A DNA stretch of 64,000 nucleotides. Source: Dipodascopsis uninucleata var. uninucleata (taxonomy: Eukaryota > Ascomycota > Lipomycetes > Lipomycetales > Lipomycetaceae). The notes beneath the pieces are model-generated. The model saw only the letters and a list, made by a program, of their open reading frames with translations, searched no databases and had not been told where the DNA came from. The position numbers and the translations under genes were made by a program. The stretch is from the NCBI GenBank assembly GCA_030568195.1, contig JAJLTO010000005.1, forward strand, positions 248,001 to 312,000, in the 5' to 3' direction. Position 1 is the first letter of the stretch, and the number at the start of each line of letters is the position of its first letter. Positions 45,244 through 60,329 of the stretch are shown here, one piece after another.

Positions 45244-46103
45244 TTACTGTAATGCCTTGAGCTTAGTGTCAATCATCTTACCAATCATATCCTCAAACAT
45301 CGTAGCACCTTGTTGGCTTAATTGCTTGTCAATCTGGAGAATAACTTGCTTCTCAAGCAACTTTCCCATGAGATCGACTTCGATATTGACGGTGTCTCCA
45401 GGATGCTTTTTCGCAGTAACAATTTTGTCTTGTGTATAAGAAATTAGCATGATAGAGAAAGCCTGCTTATCATTGTCGTCAACATCAATAACAGTTAGAC
45501 TAGCACCATCGATAGCAATAAAACCTTTTTCAACAATGAATCTCAAAAGGCTAGGATCCTTTGGCTTAAACCAAAAGGTCAAGGCTTCTCCGTCCGGAGT
45601 AACGGATAGAATCTCAGCTGTAGTATCGATATGTCCTTGAACGAAGTGACCACCAAATCGTACATGACTTGCGACCGCACGCTCGAGATTGACCTTATCT
45701 CCAGATTTTAAAAGACCAAGATTAGTTCTTCGTAGACTTTCGGGTGAAACTCCAACTTTAAAGGTAGTACTATCGAATTCTGTAATGGTCAGGCAAGTTC
45801 CTAATTATTACCGATATTCTGCTATTAGTAGAGCTTCAATTGATAGATAATCATCGGCAAAGGCATCAGCATCACTGCACTCACCGTTTACAGCAATACT
45901 GTCTCCAAGATGTGCATCTTCAAGGATCAGATCACAGTCTGTGATTACAAGAGAACTTCCATTTTCACCATCGACCTCAATAAGTTCCTTTATAGCTATA
46001 AATAAATGTTTATTTAGTGAAAATTCTATCCAATCTAATTTTCGATGAAGCTATTATGCAAATCTTACTCACTTCCAATTGCCTCAACAATACCAGTAAA
46101 CAT
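45244..46103 (-). CDS. RIB5: Riboflavin synthase
   Basis: Seen: three exons, 46103..46073, 45995..45885 and 45800..45244; 232 residues. Introns are GTGAGT...TATAG and GTGAGT...TTAG. The two lumazine-binding halves are clear. The first starts MFTGIVEAIG and contains LGDSIAVNGTCLTIT, FKVGVSPESLRRTNLG and GGHFVQGHID. The second has IVEKGFIAIDGASLTVIDV and FSIMLISYTQD. Known: the enzyme dismutates two 6,7-dimethyl-8-ribityllumazine molecules into riboflavin and the pyrimidine precursor, the last step of vitamin B2 synthesis; yeast Rib5 has 238 residues and works as a trimer. All conserved blocks are present. The start ATG is fixed by the universal MFTG N terminus, which the active site requires. 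Confidence 0.96.
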
Positions 46104-47249: not shown

Positions 47250-49176
47250 ATGTCGCTTACTTCGTCTCTAAAACCAGATAGAGAAGACGGTGATAAGGTG
47301 AAGCGTAAATCTATAAAGGTGAGATACAGATGATGTGCAGTGTTAATAAGTTTGAAGTGCTAACGTGGTTGTATGAATCTCCATTAATATTTTAGCTAAA
47401 GCTGGGTGGATTTTTGTTCTCTCTAGTAGCACTGTTTGTAGAGGTTATTAGTTACTGGTATAAAGTGAGTAGCTTATGCAATCTCGTTTTGAGCTAGGAA
47501 TCATAGCTAACCGATGATGAATTTTCTTAATTCCTAGAAATTATGGATGCTTTTTGTCACTCGTCGACCAGAAGTGCAGCTTCTGGAGAGCATGCGCAAT
47601 GCAGAATCATATGAAGAATGGCTAGTAAGTTAGATATTTTATCTATAGGAATAACATGATAGCAATAATGCTGATGAACGGATCATCTTCAAACAGGACC
47701 TGGCTTATACACTAGATAATGTCATGGGAAACGATTTATGGCGTGCAAACCCAAAATCGACTAAATACGATTATAGGCTCATATCAGAAAGGCTTGATAT
47801 ATTGATGGAAGCTAAAGAAATGAGAGATATAACCACTCTTTCAGCAATCCTAAGATCAGGTATGTATATCATGGGGCCGATTCGACATTGCCATTTGGCT
47901 GTATTATGACTAACATCTAAAACATTAAGGTCTTGTGCGGAATCTTGGTAATATAGCAAACAAGAAACTCTTCACTTATACAGGAACTAAGTTTTTAATC
48001 GAGAAATATAACGTTGAGGTAGTGGAAAGTCTTAATTTTCTACTCAAGCTGCCTCAGACAGAATTTTCTCTGCAGCGAAAATTGGATTTTGTTCATGATA
48101 CTAGACTGTCATATGGATTATCAACCCTGGTTCTCCAGGGAGGAGTTCTGTTTGGTCTCTGTCATCTTGGGGTAGTAAAAGCTCTCTACAATCATAATCT
48201 TCTACCTAGGATTATAACAGGAGTTGGAGTAGGAGCGTTGATAGCAACACTGATCTGCGTACACCGTGATGAAGAGCTTCCAATATTTTTAGATGGCCAA
48301 AGTTTGGACTTATCTGCATTTACGCGAAACCAGCCAGATGAAAATCAAGGATGGAACCGCCTTAAACGCTTAATTAAAAAGGGCTATTTATTGGATGTTC
48401 AAGTAATTGAACAAGTAGTGAAAGACAATATTGGTGATCTCACATTTGAAGAAGCATATGCTCGAACACGACGCGTTTTGAATGTGATTGTGCACTCAGA
48501 CGACAAATATGTGCCTAATGTCTTCAATTTTTTAACTACACCAAACGTCGTTATTCGGTCTGCAGCCTGTGCTAGTAATGCGCTCCCAGGACTATTTGAA
48601 GAAGTTGAAATATTATGCAAAAATGAAGAGGGTGAGGTAGTACCTTGGATACGATCTGGAAATCCTTTACACTGGAAATCATGGGCGTCAACCAGAGCCA
48701 ACGAGCGCGAAGCGCCTTACACCAGAATTTCAGAATTGTTTAACGTAAACCATCTCATAGTATCTCAAGCACATCCATATATTGTACCATTCGTGTCTAG
48801 CGACTTCCATGTTGGTTCAAAATCGCTTCGATCGAAGCTTTTTCGTTTAATTGGTCTTGAAATATTACATCGTCTCATGCAACTTGAGACACTTGGGCTC
48901 TTACCTCTGTTTCTGAAGCGTCTACTGATGCTTGATGACAGTAGGTTAATGAACTCTGAAATTGTTACTGTTGTTCCTTATATTACTCTAGGTGACTTCT
49001 GGAAGCTATTTACAGCATCACCTCGATCAAGTGACGATGTCATGTATTGGAATCGAAAGGGTGAGCAGAGCACATGGTTTTCATTACCAGTTATCCGCCA
49101 ACGCTGCGGTGTTGAATTTGTTTTGGATGCTGCGTATGATTCTCTCTTTAAAAGTAAGCGCAATAGGCGCATCTAG
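47250..49176 (+). CDS. Patatin-domain protein of the Tgl3/4/5 triacylglycerol lipase family lacking the catalytic Ser and Asp
   Basis: Seen: five exons, 47250..47318, 47396..47464, 47538..47624, 47697..47859 and 47930..49176; 544 residues. Exon 2 encodes one hydrophobic span (about residues 26-43). The family region then follows: KYDYRLISERLD, RSGLVRNLGNIANKKLF, the oxyanion-side LQGGVLFGLCHLGVVKAL, SAACASNALPGLFEEVEI, and RISELFNVNHLIVSQAHPY. Odd: where Tgl proteins have GxSxG (usually GSSAG) this one has GVGVG (residues 227-231, bases 48220-48234). Where they have the DG-S catalytic Asp before the LSELFNVNHFIVSQ block it reads ASTR. Known: patatin lipases need that Ser-Asp dyad; Tgl3/4/5 work on lipid droplets. 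Inferred: a lipid-droplet or ER pseudo-lipase with a structural or regulatory role. The frame is otherwise clean with no stops, so it is not a decaying copy. Confidence 0.88.
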
Positions 49177-49579: not shown

Positions 49580-50474
49580 ATGGTTCTAGTAAAAGCATTG
49601 TTGTTCGATGTTTTCGGAACAGTTGTGGATTGGAGAACAAATGTGGTATCCTATATTTCTGACCGATTGGACCAAAAACTTGATAAAACGATAGATTGGA
49701 ATCAATTCACAGAAGATTGGAGACGAGAATATTATGAATTCACTCAGAAAGGATCTCGAAGTGAGGCAACTAGCAACGAGTTCTTGACAGTTGATCAGCA
49801 GCATAGAATAACACTGGAGCAATTAGTACAGAAATATGGGTTTTTAGATCAAGTAACCAGCAGCGAACTCGATGATTTAACGATGGCTTGGCATAATCTC
49901 AAAGGTATTGTAGAGAATTCTAATGCATAATAGAAAATATTTCCTTTCTTACATCATTTGTAATTGATAGGATGGGACGACACTGTTGAAGGATTAAAAC
50001 TCTTAAAATCTCAATTTATCATTGGCACCTTGTCAAATGGAAACACAAAACTACTTGTAGATATGGTAAGCTCATTCAAGCAACTCCGATAGCAAAAAGT
50101 GTATATATAATTAACAGTCAAGGCTAAATATGCGGACTTACAATGGGATGTTATTTTTGGAGGAGATACCTTTAAAGCGTACAAACCTTCTTCAAAGATG
50201 TATTTGGGAGCTGCTGAGCTTCTGCAGATAGATCCAGAAAAGTAGGTTGAAATAAGATTAATGATTCAAGTGGCGAATAAGCAGCTAACAATAAAATACT
50301 AGTATCGTTATGGTGGCTGCTCATATATATGATCTTAAAGCTGCTAAAAGTTTTGGATTCCAAACAGCTTATATAGTTCGACAGGGGGAAGACGTAGGTA
50401 AAGTAGTGGGTCGTGACGAAGTTGATTTTTATACGAACAGTCTAGTCGATTTATTCAAGCAATTGACAGCGTAA
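49580..50474 (+). CDS. HAD-superfamily hydrolase, haloacid dehalogenase type II
   Basis: Seen: four exons, 49580..49904, 49971..50065, 50123..50241 and 50303..50474; 236 residues. The third exon uses the acceptor AGTCAAG|G, because the nearer AACAG breaks the frame. HAD motifs are in order: nucleophile Asp in LLFDVFGTVVDW (residue 9), motif II TLSNGN, the motif III Lys in AYKPSSKMY and acidic motif IV in AAHIYDLKAA. Known: L-2-haloacid dehalogenases hydrolyse the C-halogen bond through an Asp ester; most fungal homologs have no proven substrate. The length agrees with the family (220-245). Inferred: a cytosolic hydrolase with intact active site; the true substrate is unknown. Confidence 0.88.
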
Positions 50475-51081: not shown

Positions 51082-51391
51082 CTTAGAATATTTATTCTAT
51101 CAGATATCTTTTTCAATATTAAGATATAGTGGAGTCAATTATGGTCAAATACTACTATCAAGGAAGAGTTGCTAGAAATCAGATAGAATTGAATTTCGTT
51201 TGGCATTGCTACTGATAATGTTATTTGAGGCATAAATGCAATGATATATATACTACCCCTGATTTTTTCGGTCCCAGCGAAAAGAATTTTTCATACAATT
51301 AAAAAAATCTTTCTTCGGAGATCAAAGGTTCAAAATTAAATTGGATATTTCTTTGCGACAACACACCTGGGCCAAGTAATTTAAAGGCGAA
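51082..51391. other. Compact divergent promoter, EMC5 / ERB1
   Basis: 310 bases between divergent starts. Contains a near-match to the ribosome-biogenesis RRPE element (listed separately). Confidence 0.5.
51281..51294 (-). promoter_or_regulatory. RRPE-like element before ERB1
   Basis: The minus strand reads TGAAAAATTCTTT, one mismatch from the RRPE consensus TGAAAAATTTTT. It lies about 100 bases upstream of ERB1. Known: RRPE marks ribosome-biogenesis genes in yeasts. No PAC (GATGAG) partner was seen nearby, so support is weak. Confidence 0.3.
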
Positions 51392-53979
51392 ATGGCTAAA
51401 AGAAAGTTAGCAGCGAAGAAGAATACTACTACAAATGGTAAACCATCGACTATATCGGTCGAAAGGAAACAGAATTTTCTTAAGGCGTCTAGTTTGAAGC
51501 CTGCACTGGTGGGCGTACTTGAGGACGAGAATGAACCATCCGAAGATGACAAGGAAGACGAAGATGAAGATGAAGATGAAGATGAAGATGAAGATGATAT
51601 TGTATTTGAGGCAGATGAGTCAGATGAGGAGGACGAGTTTTCTGGAATAATTGACGGTGCTCTGTCAGATTCGGATGCTGATACTGAGAATTCGGATGCT
51701 GAGGATATCGATAACAAGGACAGTGACGATGAGCTTGAGGAGATCGATGAGGGTGACGAACCCGACGAAGAAGAAGATGAGACTGAGGAACCTGAATTTA
51801 TTGGTGTGAGCAATGTTTTTGATTCTGACGTAGACGAAGAATCAGAGTATACGTCAGCTTATGCTACCAGTGAACATGGGAGCCAGTCTTCACTCTCATC
51901 TGTTGATGATTTTGATGATAAAGTATTATACTACAAGAAGGGAGCAGATGGTAAACCAAGGCCGATTTATAAAGCTATTGATCCTCACTACTCAAGTGAT
52001 GACAGTGATAGGGAGGATGAAAACACTGTTGGTAATATACCATTATCCGCATACGATGAGTATCCTCATATTGGTTATGATATCAATGGTAAACGAATCA
52101 TGAGACCTGCAGCAGGAAGTGCGCTGGACAGTTTGTTAGACAGCATTGAGGTTCCCGAAGGTTGGACCGGTTTGATAGATAGAAACTCAGGAGCAGACTT
52201 AAAGCTTACAAAGGAAGAGCTTAATTTGATAAAGAAAATTCAGCTGGGCGAGAGCCTCGATGGAGTAAATCCATATGAAGATACTATCGAATGGTTCTCT
52301 TCGAAGACCGAGGTAATGCCTCTTTCTGCAGCACCCGAGCCCAAGCGAAGATTTGTTCCTTCGAAACATGAGGCAAAAAGAGTAATGAAGATTGTCCGTG
52401 CCATCAGAGAGGGCCGTATCGTACCAAATAAGCCAAAGACTTCGTCACAAGACGAAGAGGTTATTTACGATCTTTGGGCGGACGATCTTCCAGACCAAAC
52501 ACCTCATATTATGCATATTCCAGCCCCTAAAATGGCGAAACCTACTAATGACGAGAGCTACAATCCTCCTGCTGAATATCTTCCAACTGAGGAGGAGAAG
52601 GAAGAGTACATCAAGACAGATCCTATGGACAGAGAAAAGAACTATCTTCCTGCAAAGTATTCAGCGCTTCGAAGGGTTCCTCGCTACGATAGCTTCGTTC
52701 GTGAACGATTCGAGCGATCTCTTGATTTATATCTCGCACCTCGTGTTAAAAAGAATAAGCTTAATATCGATCCAGATTCTTTATTACCTAAGCTACCTTC
52801 TCCTCAAGATCTCAAACCTTTTCCAATCAAATGCTCTATTACCTATGAAGGTCACAAGGGCCGAGTCCGTGCCATTAGTGTGGATCCATCTGGTCTGTGG
52901 TTGGCCACTGGTGCAGATGATGGAACTTTGCGAATTTGGGAAGTTCTTACCGGACGAGAGGTCTGGAATGCCACTCTTTCTGCGGATGAGAAAGAACCGG
53001 TGCAATCAGTCGAATGGAACCCCGTTAAAGATAGTGGTATCCTGGCTGTATCAGCGTAAGCCTATTAAATTTTCTATTTTCTATTTATTTGTTTAATATG
53101 AACTAACATTATTCAACATGTAGCGGCGAAAAAATATATCTATGCTTGCCTCCAATTTTTGACGAGGCTGTTGAGAACACTGGACAAGAGATGTTATCTG
53201 CAGGATGGGGTTATGCGGCTCAGAATGGAACTAAGTCAAATTCACTAGAAGAAATCAGCAAAGAACCACCTGCTAAGTGGACGAAGCCTTCTTCGAAACT
53301 ATCGTCGCTTGGTGTGGATGTTGTCATTGTATGCCGTAAGACGGTTAAACAATTGGCCTGGCATAGACGAGGAGACTACTTTGTTGGGGTATCTCCGGAA
53401 GGCGCAAACCAGGCAGTATTAGTGCATCAAATATCAAAGCATCAAACTCAGTCGCCTTTTAGAAAGTCAAAAGGTATCATTCAAAGAGCACAGTTCCACC
53501 CTTTCAAGCCCATGTTGTATGTTGCTACTCAGCGTTACATTCGCATATATGACTTATCTATTCAGTCACTATCGAAAACTTTGCAACCGGGTGCAAGATG
53601 GCTAAGCTCTTTCGATATCCACCCACAAGGTGACAATGTCTTGACAGGATCATACGATAAACGTGTCACATGGCATGATATGGATCTGAGTACCAAACCT
53701 TACCGTACTCTACGATATCATACTAAGGCGGTCCGTGATGTTAGATTTCATTCTCGATTCCCACTTTTCTGTTCTGCAAGTGATGACGGTAGTGTTAACG
53801 TATTTCATGGTACGGTTTATGATGATCTACTGAAAAATCCGTTACTGGTACCACTGAAAGTTTTAAAGGGTCACAGTGTCGTTCAGTCTTTAGGTGTTTT
53901 GAAGGTATGCTGGCATCCCAAGGAGCCCTGGCTCTTCACGTCTGGTGCTGATAGTACTGCCAAACTTTGGACTACTTAA
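51392..53979 (+). CDS. ERB1: Ribosome biogenesis protein Erb1 (BOP1), WD-repeat
   Basis: Seen: exons 51392..53055 and 53124..53979 (intron GTAAGC...TGTAG, Ala codon split), 839 residues. The N-terminal 150 residues are strongly acidic with an ED-repeat run. The BOP1 N-terminal domain follows ([36 protein letters not shown]). A C-terminal WD40 propeller comes last, with [49 protein letters not shown] and [15 protein letters not shown]. Known: Erb1 with Nop7/Pes1 and Ytm1 forms the PeBoW complex needed for 27S pre-rRNA processing and 60S assembly in the nucleolus; yeast Erb1 has 807 residues. All parts are intact and the extra length lies in the acidic tract. The ATG is preceded by a short 5' leader in the compact divergent promoter. 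Confidence 0.96.
51554..51598 (+). repeat. GAAGAT hexamer repeat coding an Asp-Glu run
   Basis: About seven near-identical GA(A)GAT units inside ERB1, read as alternating Glu-Asp in the acidic N-terminal region. Repeat length is likely variable. Confidence 0.8.
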
Positions 53980-55459
53980 AAGAACAAGAGCTGCTTCGAA
54001 TCTGACGTTCATATTTGCGAGCTAAGGTCAAATCACGCAGATTTATATACAGTTATAGCAGCTTATATACTATGATATAAGTATTTTTTTGCTCCTGTAT
54101 GATCTAGGTAGCATATAACTATACGTTACACAAATAATGTCTTTTGATCTATAGTGATATCATCTTTACTACAGACTGGGCATAACAATGTATTATATAT
54201 TATTTAGAGCTACAATACTTAAGCTAGACCTAGTTATAGTCTACCACAATGAAGTATCACAGGTCTCTACAGATTAATCCGTAACTACTATTCTAAAATA
54301 TATAACATATACTGTTTCAAAACGTAAGACTCTCATGATTATGTAAAGTTGATAAATATTCTGTCATTTGTTCACTGGTAACTGATTTGACGTTGAAGCT
54401 AGTACAGAGTAGGCAGCTAGGACCAGGTCTTCTACAGGCTTATCACTCTTAAAAATGCTTATGAAGTGCCTGAAATCATATAGAATGATAACACAGTAAA
54501 TGGTAGATTATTACATAAAATGGTAGTATCTTCTATGTTGATTTTTCCATACTGACTATACAAGCAAATGATGAATATAACAAAAAACACAAGCACATGC
54601 TAGCGCAATTGGAAATTTATATTATAAAATTATTAAACATACAAGCCGAACTAATATTTGACTATAAAGCTCATAAAACAAAATTCTAGATTGGTATTAG
54701 CTGAAATACTATCTCGAAGCAAACTATGTACAAAATTTCCTTGTTATATAGGACGTCACTTTTGTCAAATTCATTTTTAGATTACTAAAATGTTCTGTAA
54801 TCAAGTATAGTTATGATTGTCACAAATGTTATCAAGGTCAAAAGTAAAATAATTCTGCCCTAAAAGTTCTGTACTGGATATACTGTTTATTGTACAGTAG
54901 ATACATGTGTTATACAATCCCTTAGCAATGCTGAATCGCATTCTCTTTACACTAGAAAATTGGACCAAAAAAGAACGAATAATTCATTGTCCGGCTAGTT
55001 TCTCTTCAACTTTCTTCCTTTCAGTACTTACGTATATTCTTCGCTGCTACTAATCGTAATAATACCAAAATAGAGAAGAATATTCGTAAGGAAAGAAAAA
55101 GAGTGGCTCCATAATATGGAACCACCTATCAAGAGACAAATTAAAACAAATGAGTGAGAAAGAGAAAATTTGAAATATCACAAAATAAAGTTATTTAAAA
55201 AATAGACGAACTGGAGATTCAACCAACCAATACTATTTTCAGTGCCTGTTATAGAAATGTAGACGTGTGTGGTGAAAAAAGTTACAAAATGGCACATGGT
55301 TGTGATCTTGTATATCTTTCAAGAGCATTTCAGGAACGGAGAGCGATTGGAAGTCAAAAATCTAATAAAATTCGCCTCCATGGAAACAGTAGAGAAAAAA
55401 TTGCGGAGTAGTTTAGTGATCTACTCAGCTTGGCCTAAATATTCGAACATTAGTTAGAA
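53980..55459. other. Intergenic, 1.5 kb
   Basis: AT-rich. At 54364-54469 (minus strand) there is a 34-codon open stretch directly after a TTTCAG acceptor and ending in TGA. I could not connect it to any upstream exon, so it is noted but not called. Otherwise no coding signal. Confidence 0.4.
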
Positions 55460-55723
55460 TCACTGAATCAACAATATGGGGTAATTTCGAACTGGAGTAA
55501 TCAACATACATTTCGGACAAAATTTGGATGAATCGTCACCTAATGGCTCACCACAGCGAAGACAGGCGAATCGTACAGTATCAAAATTAACAAGGCTAAT
55601 TCCACTGATAATAGTCCAGTATTTATTAGAAATTCGCGACCGAATTGTGGTGATATCGGTTCCTTGCGACGAGTAACAGTTACTGTGACTTCTGCTCCAA
55701 GGCATAATGTTTTGACAAGCCAT
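55460..55723 (-). CDS. Candidate small protein with a C-terminal CxxC...CxxC zinc ribbon
   Basis: Seen: minus-strand frame, about 87 residues from the ATG at 55723. It ends FACLRCGEPL...KFCPKCMLITP plus ten residues; two CxxC knuckles ten residues apart make a plausible zinc ribbon. The frame stays open for 46 more codons upstream (to about 55861) without an ATG, so a 5' exon may be missing. A donor-like GTATGT sits immediately inside the last knuckle, so the 3' end could also be spliced. Known: such ribbons occur in many nucleic-acid-binding proteins. I do not recognise the family, and this may not be a gene. Confidence 0.3.
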   Translation of the reverse strand: MACQNIMPWSRSHSNCYSSQGTDITTIRSRISNKYWTIISGISLVNFDTVRFACLRCGEPLGDDSSKFCPKCMLITPVRNYPILLIQ

Positions 55724-58700
55724 GGTTGATATCTCGTCTAATTTAGGTTCCTTGGCGCTGAATAAGAGAATAAAAAAGTTCTCAGCAACTCGTAGACAAG
55801 AGCTGAGAAAGAGACTGCGCTTATACAAATATGCGTTCGTACACGCGATGTTGTCTGTCAAACGTTCTCTGGGTTTTCAATTCAACAATATGCAGCATCC
55901 AAGAAGCCGCTCGTTCTTTGCAACTAATATTCTATTTCCTGTGACTCTCACTTTCAGATGCGTTTAGGACCACTATTTTATTTGCCTTTAATCGCTTAGG
56001 AAGATCGAAAGCGGCAGTAGCAGCAATAATGTTGGTTATGTGGAAGGACCTTTGTTGGATCGGATCCGAAAAGTGACGTTCATTCGTCAAATATGATTTC
56101 AAGACTGAGAAGACAAAAGAGATAATAGTGAAAAAAGGAAACGAATGTGGAAGTCCAGGCAAGTATCAGTATAAATAGTTTTTGTCTGGGGGGTAACTGG
56201 ATCTCAAAGGAAGGTGACGATATTGAAAGATTAACACAGTTTAGAACAGTATTTGTTTTACTAGAACAGAAAAGAAAGAAGAAACGTAGTAGACGAGATA
56301 TGGGGAAGGGAGAGGGAAGAAGGGAAAGAAAACCATCTACGTATTGAGTACTATATATATACCTGTACCCGCGTGAGTATCTGTAGGCTAATATACCTGT
56401 ATATTTGTATACAGATGTGGTAATACAAAGTTACATCGTGTGCAGTTGGTACATATGACATGAGCGTAAATGCATATTTGGACGATAGGGAGAGTACATA
56501 TAAAAACTAACTAGAAATCTACAGCGGAACAAGGACGAGTAGCAAGAGCTAGGAAAGTCAGAAGGTAGCATGACGGCAGCTACACATAATGCACACCCAT
56601 TCTCGTAGCTTTATGCAACCCTCCTGAGCCTGTTCTGGCGCCCTTGCTCCCTGGCGCGATGCCATTAAAACGAACTAGGCCACGTTTCGTATACGCTTGT
56701 GCTGCCTATCTTCGTGTCGCCTATCTAGTGCTGTAATTTATGGACGGGGGCTGCTAGCAAACAACCTGTCAGGCGCATGTCTGCTCGTTTATTTGCCAGC
56801 TGTATGAGAGGCACATTGTTATTGTTTACTTTGGTCCACACCACCTGTCTGGCTACTATCTGGCCACCCACGCTGGGACAAACAGCCAAACAGACGAGCG
56901 ACCCTGAAATGGAGGTTGGACATCACTCAGGATGTGTGTGCTTTGTTTCAAGGTGGTCAAACTAGAACGTAAATAAATAGTTGAAATTAAGCAAACAGGA
57001 CTGGACTATGCACGATGACATCAGCTGCGTCGCACCCGTTTAGGAAGGGAAAAATCTGGGGAATTCTAAAATGAAGTAATAAAACAAAATTAAGTACAAC
57101 CCAGATCTAATTAATTTATTAGCGGGAAATTAAAAAATCTGTTTCAAAACGAAATTTTAAAGTCACCTTAACACCCCTCTAATAATCCTGAGCCCCTGCA
57201 CTGAGTACCACGAAAACACGCAAACAGCATAATTCTGCCTTTTTGTCCTGGAAGAGGCACATGACTGACATCGTCAGACGGGACGCACACAATCGTTCAT
57301 ATACCCGAGCTGGAGTACTCCTTGTCCGTTGCCATGTGAACAACCACACTGGTCTGTTTGTTTACTCTCTCCTCTTTTGGCAGCTGCCCGTCTAGAGTTT
57401 TATCTGCTTTCTGCATCGTCGTTCTTCTCTCTTTTTTTACATCTCAGAGACACGCGCACGCACGCGTGTATTCTTCCTGTGTCCTGTCTGGGGATGCCTC
57501 TGCAGCAAGTGTCTGCCGCAGCCACCCGATATCTGCACTGTGGCAGGCGCACACAGGCGCGGCCTAGCGCACAGTCTGGATGCTCCTGCGCGCTCCGTGT
57601 TCTCAGCGCGCAGGGTTCCGGTAGATCTCCGTGTCCCTTCTACATGGGTGCGAGCCGCGCCGGTATATCATACACGAACGCTGCACGAGCATCACTAGAC
57701 GCTAGTTGTTCATTTCACCGCTGATGCTTTTCCATGTGTCTGGTTGGCTAGCCAACGCCGTGTCAATCGGGTGAACCCGCGTCGGCGTGCCGTGACGACG
57801 CTTACTGAGGAACCTGTTGCCCGTTGTCGTGGCGATCGTCCCTTAACGAGCGGCGTCTAGCTCGAAGCATGCATGTCTATCTAGCTTAAAATCTAGAACT
57901 CACCGCCGTACGTTTTCTGTGATCGCAGTGATCTACCGTAAGTGCCAATGGCTGTTAATGGCCATCTTGAACACTAATAAATATTTGGCGACAAAAAATT
58001 ATAATTTTATAATATTATGTTATTGCTACGTTAAATAAATATCTATTTTAGGTAATTTCAATAACAAGTATATCTGCCTAGTATGCTGGCTGTGCGCACG
58101 CAAGTCAGATTCAGTAAATAGCGTTATTACCAGAAGCATACCGTAGGGCCGACTTGGCCAGCGTGCACGCCATATTACGGAGAGAGGCTATTGCTCAAAT
58201 ACCACGCACTTCGCAGTGCCAATTATAGTCTCGTCTATTGGGATAAGCAGACGATCCTGCAGAGCCAAAGCTCTGCTACAATCTGCTAGCATCTGGAAGG
58301 ATCCTCAATCGATCATCAGATCATGATGGAAGGTTGCTTCCGACTGAATCTCAGCAAGACCATGCATGCAATTGAAACTGAATAAGCTCAGTTCTACTGC
58401 AGGCTCAGGTCGTTGGTTCTGCTACCTCACTGAGAGCTTTAACTCTGCAGCAGACTAATTTGCACTGCCAAGCATCGTCACGCATCGGAGTAGCGTGCCT
58501 ACCATTTATGTAGTCTACAGCAGCAGTAAACGAAGTGGTACAACAGGCTTGATCGTTACGCTGTATTTCAAGGAAGAATCCATAATCGTAGTTGTATCTT
58601 CAGCAGCGGGAGCTGAAAATTCATTGGCACTCGCGAAGTCCTAGGGGAACGGCGGGTCAATATGGGTTACGTAGTCAGCTCAGCGCAGCCGAAACTTCGT

Positions 58701-60329
58701 CGAAGGCATCTTCGACGGTAACCTCGTCAGTATTAACACCTGTAGTTCTCTTTTCAGCTTCACTGGACTTGTGAAGCATGAAACTAATTTGACTCTATTT
58801 TCTACAACATACGAGGCATTGTAATCCGTCGTATTCGGGGCTCATGGTAAGACATGTGATCAAACAGATCCGCTGACTCAATGATAAGAACTATCCCAGT
58901 CATTTTGAGTGTGTTATTAAGCTGCTATCCTGGTTGCTACTTATATTGATTCCTGACTGCACCTACAAGGAAACTAATGTCTACGGAACAGCTCATATTT
59001 ATACTCAGACATTACTCCATATGCTTTGAATTCCATTGTGTTCCTTAGATATTTGAGGACGCCAAATATCCTCGATTTACTATTACTATTCCATCTCCGA
59101 GATTATACTATTACTCTCAATTTCCGACCTGCAACCCTCCTCAATTGGCCACGACATGTTCAAACCTAAACTTTATCGGCCATTTTAAGTTCCTTCATTC
59201 TGTTCTGACAACACAAGCCGCATAGAACCCTACCTTCCATCTCATTTTGCAACAGCTTAGCAAACTTACCCTCGGTTTGATCATTACAGAGGGTAATAGA
59301 GTGTAGGAAGGTTTAGAGAGAATAACTGCAGACGGGAACTCGGCGGTTACGTTACGTTCTTGTTCATGAAAGGACCATGGATATCTCTACTTAAGTAGAT
59401 TTATTGACATTTCCTGACTACGAATCTTTGGAAGACGAGTGGTATGAAAATATAACCTCAAAAGTAATAAAAAATTTCCGAGTTAAAGCATATGGGTTTG
59501 TGTGGTATCCGAGGTATCTAGCAACACTATACTCATCTGGCAACGAACACCCAGTAAACTTTCTCTAACTGTCTTTCACGATCGTTAGCTTGCTAATTCA
59601 AAGGTATAGTATATAACACGAGTAGTGGCTAGTGATTATATGTCGTTACTGTTAGTAACATGAATGATTGTATTTCGTGCGGAAAAGGGAACTGGAAATG
59701 CTTCGCGTGAGTTAACAGCAACTCCTCACTGTTTACGTACTCTTTAGTTGTATAAAATTACTAGCTGAAGAATGAAGAGTAAAAACTTATCTAACATTGG
59801 TAGGAGATAGTGAACTAACGATGACTAGTAGAGACATTCACTAAATACAATACACACCAGTATAGCAGAACTACAATTTGAAGTAAGTGCGTCCTGTTCA
59901 TTTTTTTGTCATCTTTTGTTTGGTGTGTCTTTCCTGTCCTATTACTGAAAGACCTTATTTATTCGTCATTTGGTGTGACACCAAGATGATGACGATGCGC
60001 TGGATGTATGAAGTGAGAAGCATGGTGTTGATAGTTTGGTTATAATGCTTTTGTGTGCGTATTGACGTTTACTAACGTGACAGCAATAGTGTTAGCCAGC
60101 TGTTTTAGGCACTTTCATTTTCTAGTTGTCCAGCTTCCTGAGACGACTATATCGTGAATCTCTACTTTTTACTTCTGTGTACATTTATTTCTATTTTATT
60201 CGACGTTTTTCAAGTGTGTCTTGATACCTTACGACATTTCAAACGCATAAACTTACACACGCGAGTCCACTTGATAAACGATTCTGATCGCCTTAGTACT
60301 GCTGATGCATTTATACAAATTTTCATTCA
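55724..60329. other. 4.5 kb non-coding region with a GC-rich island, upstream of the 922-residue gene
   Basis: No frame with family resemblance on either strand. Base composition shifts clearly: about 56560-58800 is much richer in GC than the rest of the window, peaking at 57440-57740 with many GCGC and CAG/CTG words. It then returns to AT-rich. It probably represents promoter or a long 5' leader. Short overlapping frames within it (for example 57329-57724) are read as by-products of composition. Confidence 0.5.

What the first reader, a model, noticed from the sequence alone, without database searches (positions are those of the whole stretch)
48100..48760. Tgl/patatin-family protein that has lost both catalytic residues
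Seen: the segment aligned with the nucleophile elbow GxSxG reads GVGVG (48220-48234), and the segment that should carry the catalytic Asp-Gly just before the conserved RISELFNVNHLIVSQ block reads ASTRANE. Surrounding family blocks, including the oxyanion-side GGVLFG and the N-terminal RSGLVRNLGNIAN, are well kept, and a 544-residue frame runs through five exons without disruption. Known: patatin lipases need the Ser-Asp dyad. Inference: a conserved pseudo-lipase, perhaps a scaffold or inhibitor of active Tgl proteins at lipid droplets.
Basis: partly seen in the sequence, partly recalled or inferred. Interest (0 to 1): 0.8.

Follow-up and report, generated by a model that had tools for sequence, protein, structure and literature searches.

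The report
Fungal Tgl3-type lipase without catalytic serine
A yeast-like fungus carries an intact gene for a relative of fat-droplet lipases that lacks the amino acids needed to cut fat; it is best read as a helper of a working lipase, much as has been suggested for a similar protein in the oily yeast Yarrowia.

Summary
A five-exon, 544-residue gene (47250-49176, +) encodes a DUF3336-plus-patatin protein. Its nucleophile elbow is GVGVG and it has no Asp-Gly at the second site. All 50 bacterial homologues examined keep Ser, Asp-Gly and a third motif, QxYxG[D/N]; the window protein has none of the three.

Two corrections. First, it is Tgl3-class: it groups with S. cerevisiae Tgl3, not Tgl4/5. 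Those yeast sequences were recalled, not fetched, though they passed checks. Second, recalled Tgl3 also lacks Asp-Gly and QxYxG[D/N]: 17 of the 23 near-invariant positions missing here are missing there. So the Asp loss is shared with a protein reported as an active lipase; Ser-to-Gly is the extra step here.

A precedent is in print: Yarrowia Tgl3 is said to lack a key lipase motif and to activate Tgl4 (passages). Best reading: a pseudoenzyme Tgl3 that works through a Tgl4-type lipase at lipid droplets. Loss of the lipase site is well supported by sequence; the activator role is analogy. No genome, paralogue or orthologue set was available, so conservation and dN/dS are untested.

The parts
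47250..47318 (+). exon 1, start codon
47396..47464 (+). exon 2, hydrophobic N-terminal stretch
47538..47624 (+). exon 3
47697..47859 (+). exon 4, part of DUF3336 region
47930..49176 (+). exon 5 with end of DUF3336, whole patatin domain and stop codon
48220..48234 (+). GVGVG in place of GxSxG; Gly229 codon 48226-48228
48685..48705 (+). ASTRANE in place of the Asp-Gly segment; residues 383-384 at 48688-48693

Best explanation
The gene is the Tgl3-class member of the DUF3336/patatin triacylglycerol lipase family in an ascomycete. The protein keeps most conserved family blocks but cannot run Ser-Asp lipase chemistry: the nucleophile Ser is Gly, Asp-Gly is absent and QxYxG[D/N] is absent. It most likely acts at the lipid droplet as a non-catalytic partner that promotes a Tgl4-type lipase, as suggested for Yarrowia Tgl3. 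Shown here by sequence: intact frame, domains, residue losses, grouping with (recalled) Tgl3. Inferred: no lipase activity, droplet location, activation of Tgl4.
For: Intact spliced frame and both Pfam domains. Ser, Asp-Gly and QxYxG[D/N] in 50 of 50 bacterial homologues, absent here. Of 68 near-invariant columns among 19 non-redundant homologues, 45 are kept here and 41 in recalled S. cerevisiae Tgl3, so it is no more eroded than that Tgl3. Grouping with Tgl3: UFBoot 100; other placements rejected, p-AU 0.0009 and 0.0010. Not faster than Tgl3: branch 0.71 against 1.53; window-only against Tgl3-only changes 19 v 51 (bacterial majority, chi2 14.6), 44 v 62 (Tgl4, 3.1), 43 v 66 (Tgl5, 4.9), 33 v 75 (L040, 16.3). 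No HX4D acyltransferase motif. Precedent: PMC4815080 says it has been suggested that Yarrowia TGL3 positively regulates TGL4 but may lack lipase activity of its own, as it lacks a key motif (passage); PMC12014800 and PMC7762315 call Tgl3 an activator or positive regulator of Tgl4 (passages). In one Yarrowia strain, loss of TGL3, TGL4 or both lowered free fatty acids by 63, 60 and 49% (PMC12006985 passage): the double is not worse than the singles.
Against: No Tgl4-type gene was found in this window and no genome is held, so the partner is unseen. PMC12006985 itself calls TGL3 and TGL4 two major lipases, and a table in PMC4815080 lists TGL3 as a lipase. Yeast Tgl sequences were recalled. Recalled Tgl4 and Tgl5 keep 54 and 52 of the 68 columns, more than the 45 here. 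With Tgl4 as outgroup the rate difference to Tgl3 is not significant. The AlphaFold model was too poor to use (mean pLDDT 45.1, pTM 0.41). The last exon's coding score (0.088) is below all 11 reference ORFs of the window (0.111-0.287), though above its other five frames.
Confidence: 0.55

Rival explanations
1. A pseudoenzyme that restrains lipolysis: it occupies droplet surface or binds Tgl4-type lipases without activating them (inhibitor or competitor).
For: Same anatomy: intact frame, lost catalytic residues.
Against: Deleting Yarrowia TGL3 slows, not speeds, fat breakdown (passages). No inhibitor case was seen in what I read.
Confidence: 0.15
2. A gene recently freed from selection and starting to decay: the Ser was lost by drift and the protein has no role.
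For: Catalytic Ser gone; coding score lower than the 11 reference ORFs; fewer conserved columns kept than recalled Tgl4 and Tgl5.
Against: 544 codons without a stop and four intact introns; 45 of 68 near-invariant columns kept against 41 in recalled Tgl3; not faster than Tgl3; at least two base changes at the Ser codon.
Confidence: 0.12
3. The protein still has an enzyme activity by another route, for example acyl transfer or hydrolysis with other residues, since S. cerevisiae Tgl3 is called active although it lacks Asp-Gly (recalled sequence).
For: Oxyanion glycines kept. Tgl4 is reported to have acyltransferase activity without an HX4D motif (PMC7613133 passage).
Against: Neither the nucleophile Ser nor HX4D is present.
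Confidence: 0.13

Closest known systems
Yarrowia lipolytica Tgl3 (YALI0D17534g)
   Same: Said to lack a key lipase motif and to act as positive regulator of Tgl4 (passages of PMC4815080, PMC12014800, PMC7762315). Same class by name; the window protein groups with recalled S. cerevisiae Tgl3.
   Different: Its sequence was not seen, so whether the missing motif is the same is unknown. The window protein's role is untested. The original paper (doi 10.1016/j.bbalip.2013.07.001) is not held.
Saccharomyces cerevisiae Tgl3 (sequence recalled)
   Same: 33.5% identity over 514 aligned columns; both lack Asp-Gly and QxYxG[D/N]; both have a hydrophobic N-terminal stretch.
   Different: Has GxSxG (Ser237) and HX4D (His298), both absent here; described as a lipase and acyltransferase (passages).
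Saccharomyces cerevisiae Tgl4 and Tgl5 (recalled; Tgl4 residues 1-635 only)
   Same: Same family; 29.3 and 29.9% identity.
   Different: Keep Ser and Asp-Gly; Tgl4 keeps QxYxGD and Tgl5 QxYxGN. The window protein groups with Tgl3 instead.
   Same: 28-35% identity in the best local alignment.
   Different: 50 of 50 keep all three catalytic-site motifs.

Membership tests
DUF3336/patatin lipase family (by descent) | DUF3336 followed by a patatin domain | tested here: met
   PF11815 and PF01734 over cut-off in the last-exon frame
Active patatin lipase | nucleophile Ser in GxSxG | tested here: not met
   GVGVG; Ser in 50 of 50 homologues
Active patatin lipase | catalytic Asp in Asp-Gly | tested here: not met
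   Ser-Thr; Asp-Gly in 50 of 50 homologues; also absent in recalled Tgl3
Active patatin lipase | Gly-rich oxyanion loop | tested here: met
   Gly200, Gly201, Gly205 kept
Tgl3 class (by descent) | groups with Tgl3 rather than Tgl4/5 | tested here: met
   UFBoot 100, p-AU about 0.001 against the two alternatives; all three fungal comparators recalled
Tgl3 class (by descent) | shared absence of Asp-Gly and QxYxG[D/N] | tested here: met
   Tgl3 sequence recalled
Tgl3/Tgl5-type acyltransferase | HX4D motif | tested here: not met
   none in 544 residues
Yarrowia Tgl3-type regulator | lacks a key lipase motif | tested here: inconclusive
   a lipase motif is missing here, but the passage does not say which one Yarrowia Tgl3 lacks
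Yarrowia Tgl3-type regulator | raises Tgl4 activity at the droplet | not testable with these tools
   needs experiment

The most novel reading that the evidence does not exclude
The Tgl3 class gave up the Ser-Asp dyad early: Asp-Gly and QxYxG[D/N] went before the lineages of S. cerevisiae and this fungus parted, and the Ser was then lost in some lineages (this one, perhaps Yarrowia). Tgl3 would be in essence a non-catalytic partner of Tgl4 across these yeasts, and the lipase activity credited to S. cerevisiae Tgl3 would need another explanation or a Ser-only mechanism.
Probability: 0.3. Interest if true: 0.65.

Novelty: new member of a known kind. Interest (0 to 1): 0.42.

Why it matters
It is a clear case of a Tgl3-class protein with neither catalytic residue in an otherwise intact gene. 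It also shows (on recalled sequence) that the missing Asp-Gly is shared with S. cerevisiae Tgl3. That makes a question directly testable: is Tgl3 a lipase in its own right anywhere, or a partner of Tgl4? The answer bears on fat mobilisation in yeasts used to make oils.

Tried and rejected
Rejected: a one-base error at the Ser site (the Gly codon is two or more changes from any Ser codon); a hidden Asp-Gly by frameshift (none in the three forward frames of 48600-48740); Tgl4/5 orthology. A second patatin gene in the window was sought with four queries and not found (best E outside the gene 1.0).

Led nowhere: three scans of viral contigs without a relative; structure prediction from 17 sequences, so no fold search was run; PDB sequence search, six weak hits, best E 0.023; NCBIfam, nothing over cut-off. 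The padloc and phrogs libraries were not searched. Three papers on Tgl catalysis (doi 10.1016/j.bbalip.2013.07.001, PMC2820416, PMC2871444) are not held.

Literature: ten searches. Apart from the Yarrowia statement I noticed no other Tgl3 said to lack its motif, but most papers were seen only as listings (titles and starts of abstracts), some lists were cut short, and most subscription papers are not in the library. Passages only were read in PMC4815080, PMC12014800, PMC7762315, PMC3222671, PMC7613133, PMC10741089 and PMC12006985.

Tree caveats: the two rejected placements reached the same likelihood, so in effect one unresolved alternative was rejected; Tgl3 is a long branch; the model was LG+G4 and LG+F+G4.

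Organism: not identified. That the best Erb1 chains are S. cerevisiae, the 8i9p and 5cxb sets Chaetomium, 8fkp human and 8esq S. pombe is recalled; the tool printed no species.

Full report
What is there. The gene runs from 47250 to 49176 on the + strand in five exons with GT-AG introns of 70-77 bases and encodes 544 residues. The last exon holds 415 open codons and matches Patatin (E 1.3e-24) and DUF3336 (E 2.2e-11) in Pfam. The frame has coding character: 0.088 per codon, against -0.342 and -0.435 in the other forward frames and -0.131 to -0.368 in reverse. That is still lower than all 11 other ORFs of the window used to build the score (0.111-0.287; they were part of the training).

Comparison set. 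No genome is held for the window. A tblastn search of plasmids gave four Acinetobacter records at 33.1% identity over 67% of the query. From one of them I reached 33 Acinetobacter loci, then searched 299 genomes of the same phylum for DUF3336: 11 of 299 had a match. All 50 loci held gave a homologue at E below 1e-5, 45 distinct sequences. All 50 keep the nucleophile Ser, Asp-Gly followed by Ser or Ala, and QxYxG[D/N]; the window protein has none of the three. It keeps the oxyanion glycines, His208 and Pro349. The set is bacterial and heavy in Acinetobacter.

For counts I reduced the 50 to 19 below 80% identity, dropping 31. Of 68 columns that are the same in 18 or 19 of 19, the window protein keeps 45 and departs at 23.

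Which class. Recalled Tgl3 has 642 residues, GxSxG Ser at 237 and HX4D His at 298, the positions I had named beforehand. Recalled Tgl5 weighs 84.7 kDa, as PMC7613133 prints. These sequences should be replaced by fetched ones. With them, the window protein is nearest to Tgl3 (33.5% over 514 columns, against 29.3% and 29.9% for Tgl4 and Tgl5). A tree of 481 columns separates window protein plus Tgl3 from Tgl4, Tgl5 and the bacteria with UFBoot 100. The two other placements are rejected with p-AU 0.0009 and 0.0010; both reached the same likelihood, so they amount to one unresolved alternative. Tgl3 is a long branch, so attraction is not wholly excluded, but the shared absence of Asp-Gly and QxYxG[D/N] agrees with the tree.

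What was lost when. Of the 23 departures, 17 are also departures in recalled Tgl3, among them Asp, Gly and the Ser after them, and the four columns of QxYxGD. Six are in the window protein only, among them the nucleophile Ser. Tgl3 departs at ten columns where the window protein does not. Recalled Tgl4 and Tgl5 keep 54 and 52 of the 68. Ser to Gly is the telling change, and it takes two or more base changes from any Ser codon.

Decay or function. Against decay: intact frame and splice sites, and a rate no faster than Tgl3. Window-only against Tgl3-only changes are 19 v 51 (bacterial majority as outgroup, chi2 14.6), 44 v 62 (Tgl4, 3.1, not significant), 43 v 66 (Tgl5, 4.9) and 33 v 75 (L040, 16.3); branch lengths are 0.71 and 1.53. 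This is indirect.

How it would work. The precedent is Yarrowia lipolytica Tgl3. [quoted passage not shown] PMC12014800 and PMC7762315 say that Tgl3 activates Tgl4 (passages). In PMC12006985, loss of TGL3, TGL4 or both lowered free fatty acids by 63, 60 and 49% (passage), as expected if both act in one step; but that paper itself calls both of them lipases, and a table of PMC4815080 lists TGL3 as a lipase too. By analogy the window protein would sit on the droplet, perhaps through its hydrophobic N-terminal stretch, and support a Tgl4-type lipase. The best 19-residue hydropathy within residues 1-70 is 1.92 (at 24), against 1.24 in recalled Tgl3 and 0.32 or less in recalled Tgl4 and Tgl5 and the two bacterial proteins tested. 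The step from sequence to no lipase activity is strong inference; the step to activator is analogy; droplet location is inference. An inhibitor is possible, but I saw no precedent.

Host. The first Erb1-like ORF scores 538 bits against the best Erb1 chains (S. cerevisiae, recalled), 513 against 8i9p (Chaetomium, recalled), 331 against human-type BOP1 and 318 against the 8esq erb1 chain (S. pombe, recalled). The second ORF gives 393, about 355, 289 and 301. With short introns and 39.3% G+C this suggests an intron-bearing ascomycete that is not a near relative of S. pombe. The species is not known.

Verdict. Observation confirmed; interpretation partly supported. It is a new member of a known kind, a Tgl3-class pseudoenzyme. 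Its main value is that it puts the catalytic status of Tgl3 in general up for test.

Noticed in passing
window 51383-53976 (+): An Erb1/BOP1 ribosome-biogenesis gene in two ORFs (BOP1NT E 9.7e-106, then WD40 repeats), apparently split by a short intron.
   Followed up: partly
window 49580-50474 (+): Just downstream, a short multi-exon gene whose first ORF begins MVLVKALLFDVFGTVVDW and looks like a HAD-type hydrolase (label recalled); Pfam gave that ORF only a sub-cut-off hit to another family.
   Followed up: no
window 45247-45804 (-): Riboflavin synthase-like ORF with two lumazine-binding stretches; nearest PDB chain 1kzl.
   Followed up: partly
S. cerevisiae Tgl3, recalled sequence, residues about 406-412 and 573-581: Recalled Tgl3 itself lacks Asp-Gly and QxYxG[D/N], which recalled Tgl4 and Tgl5 and 50 of 50 bacterial homologues keep, although it is described as a lipase.
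   Followed up: partly
L037/L047, L038/L048, L039/L049, L041/L050: Four of the 11 bacterial genomes with DUF3336 carry two copies each, one scoring higher against the profile than the other.
   Followed up: no
window 54000-60300: About 6 kb with only three unassigned frames of 110 codons or more between the Erb1 gene and a 930-codon frame.
   Followed up: no
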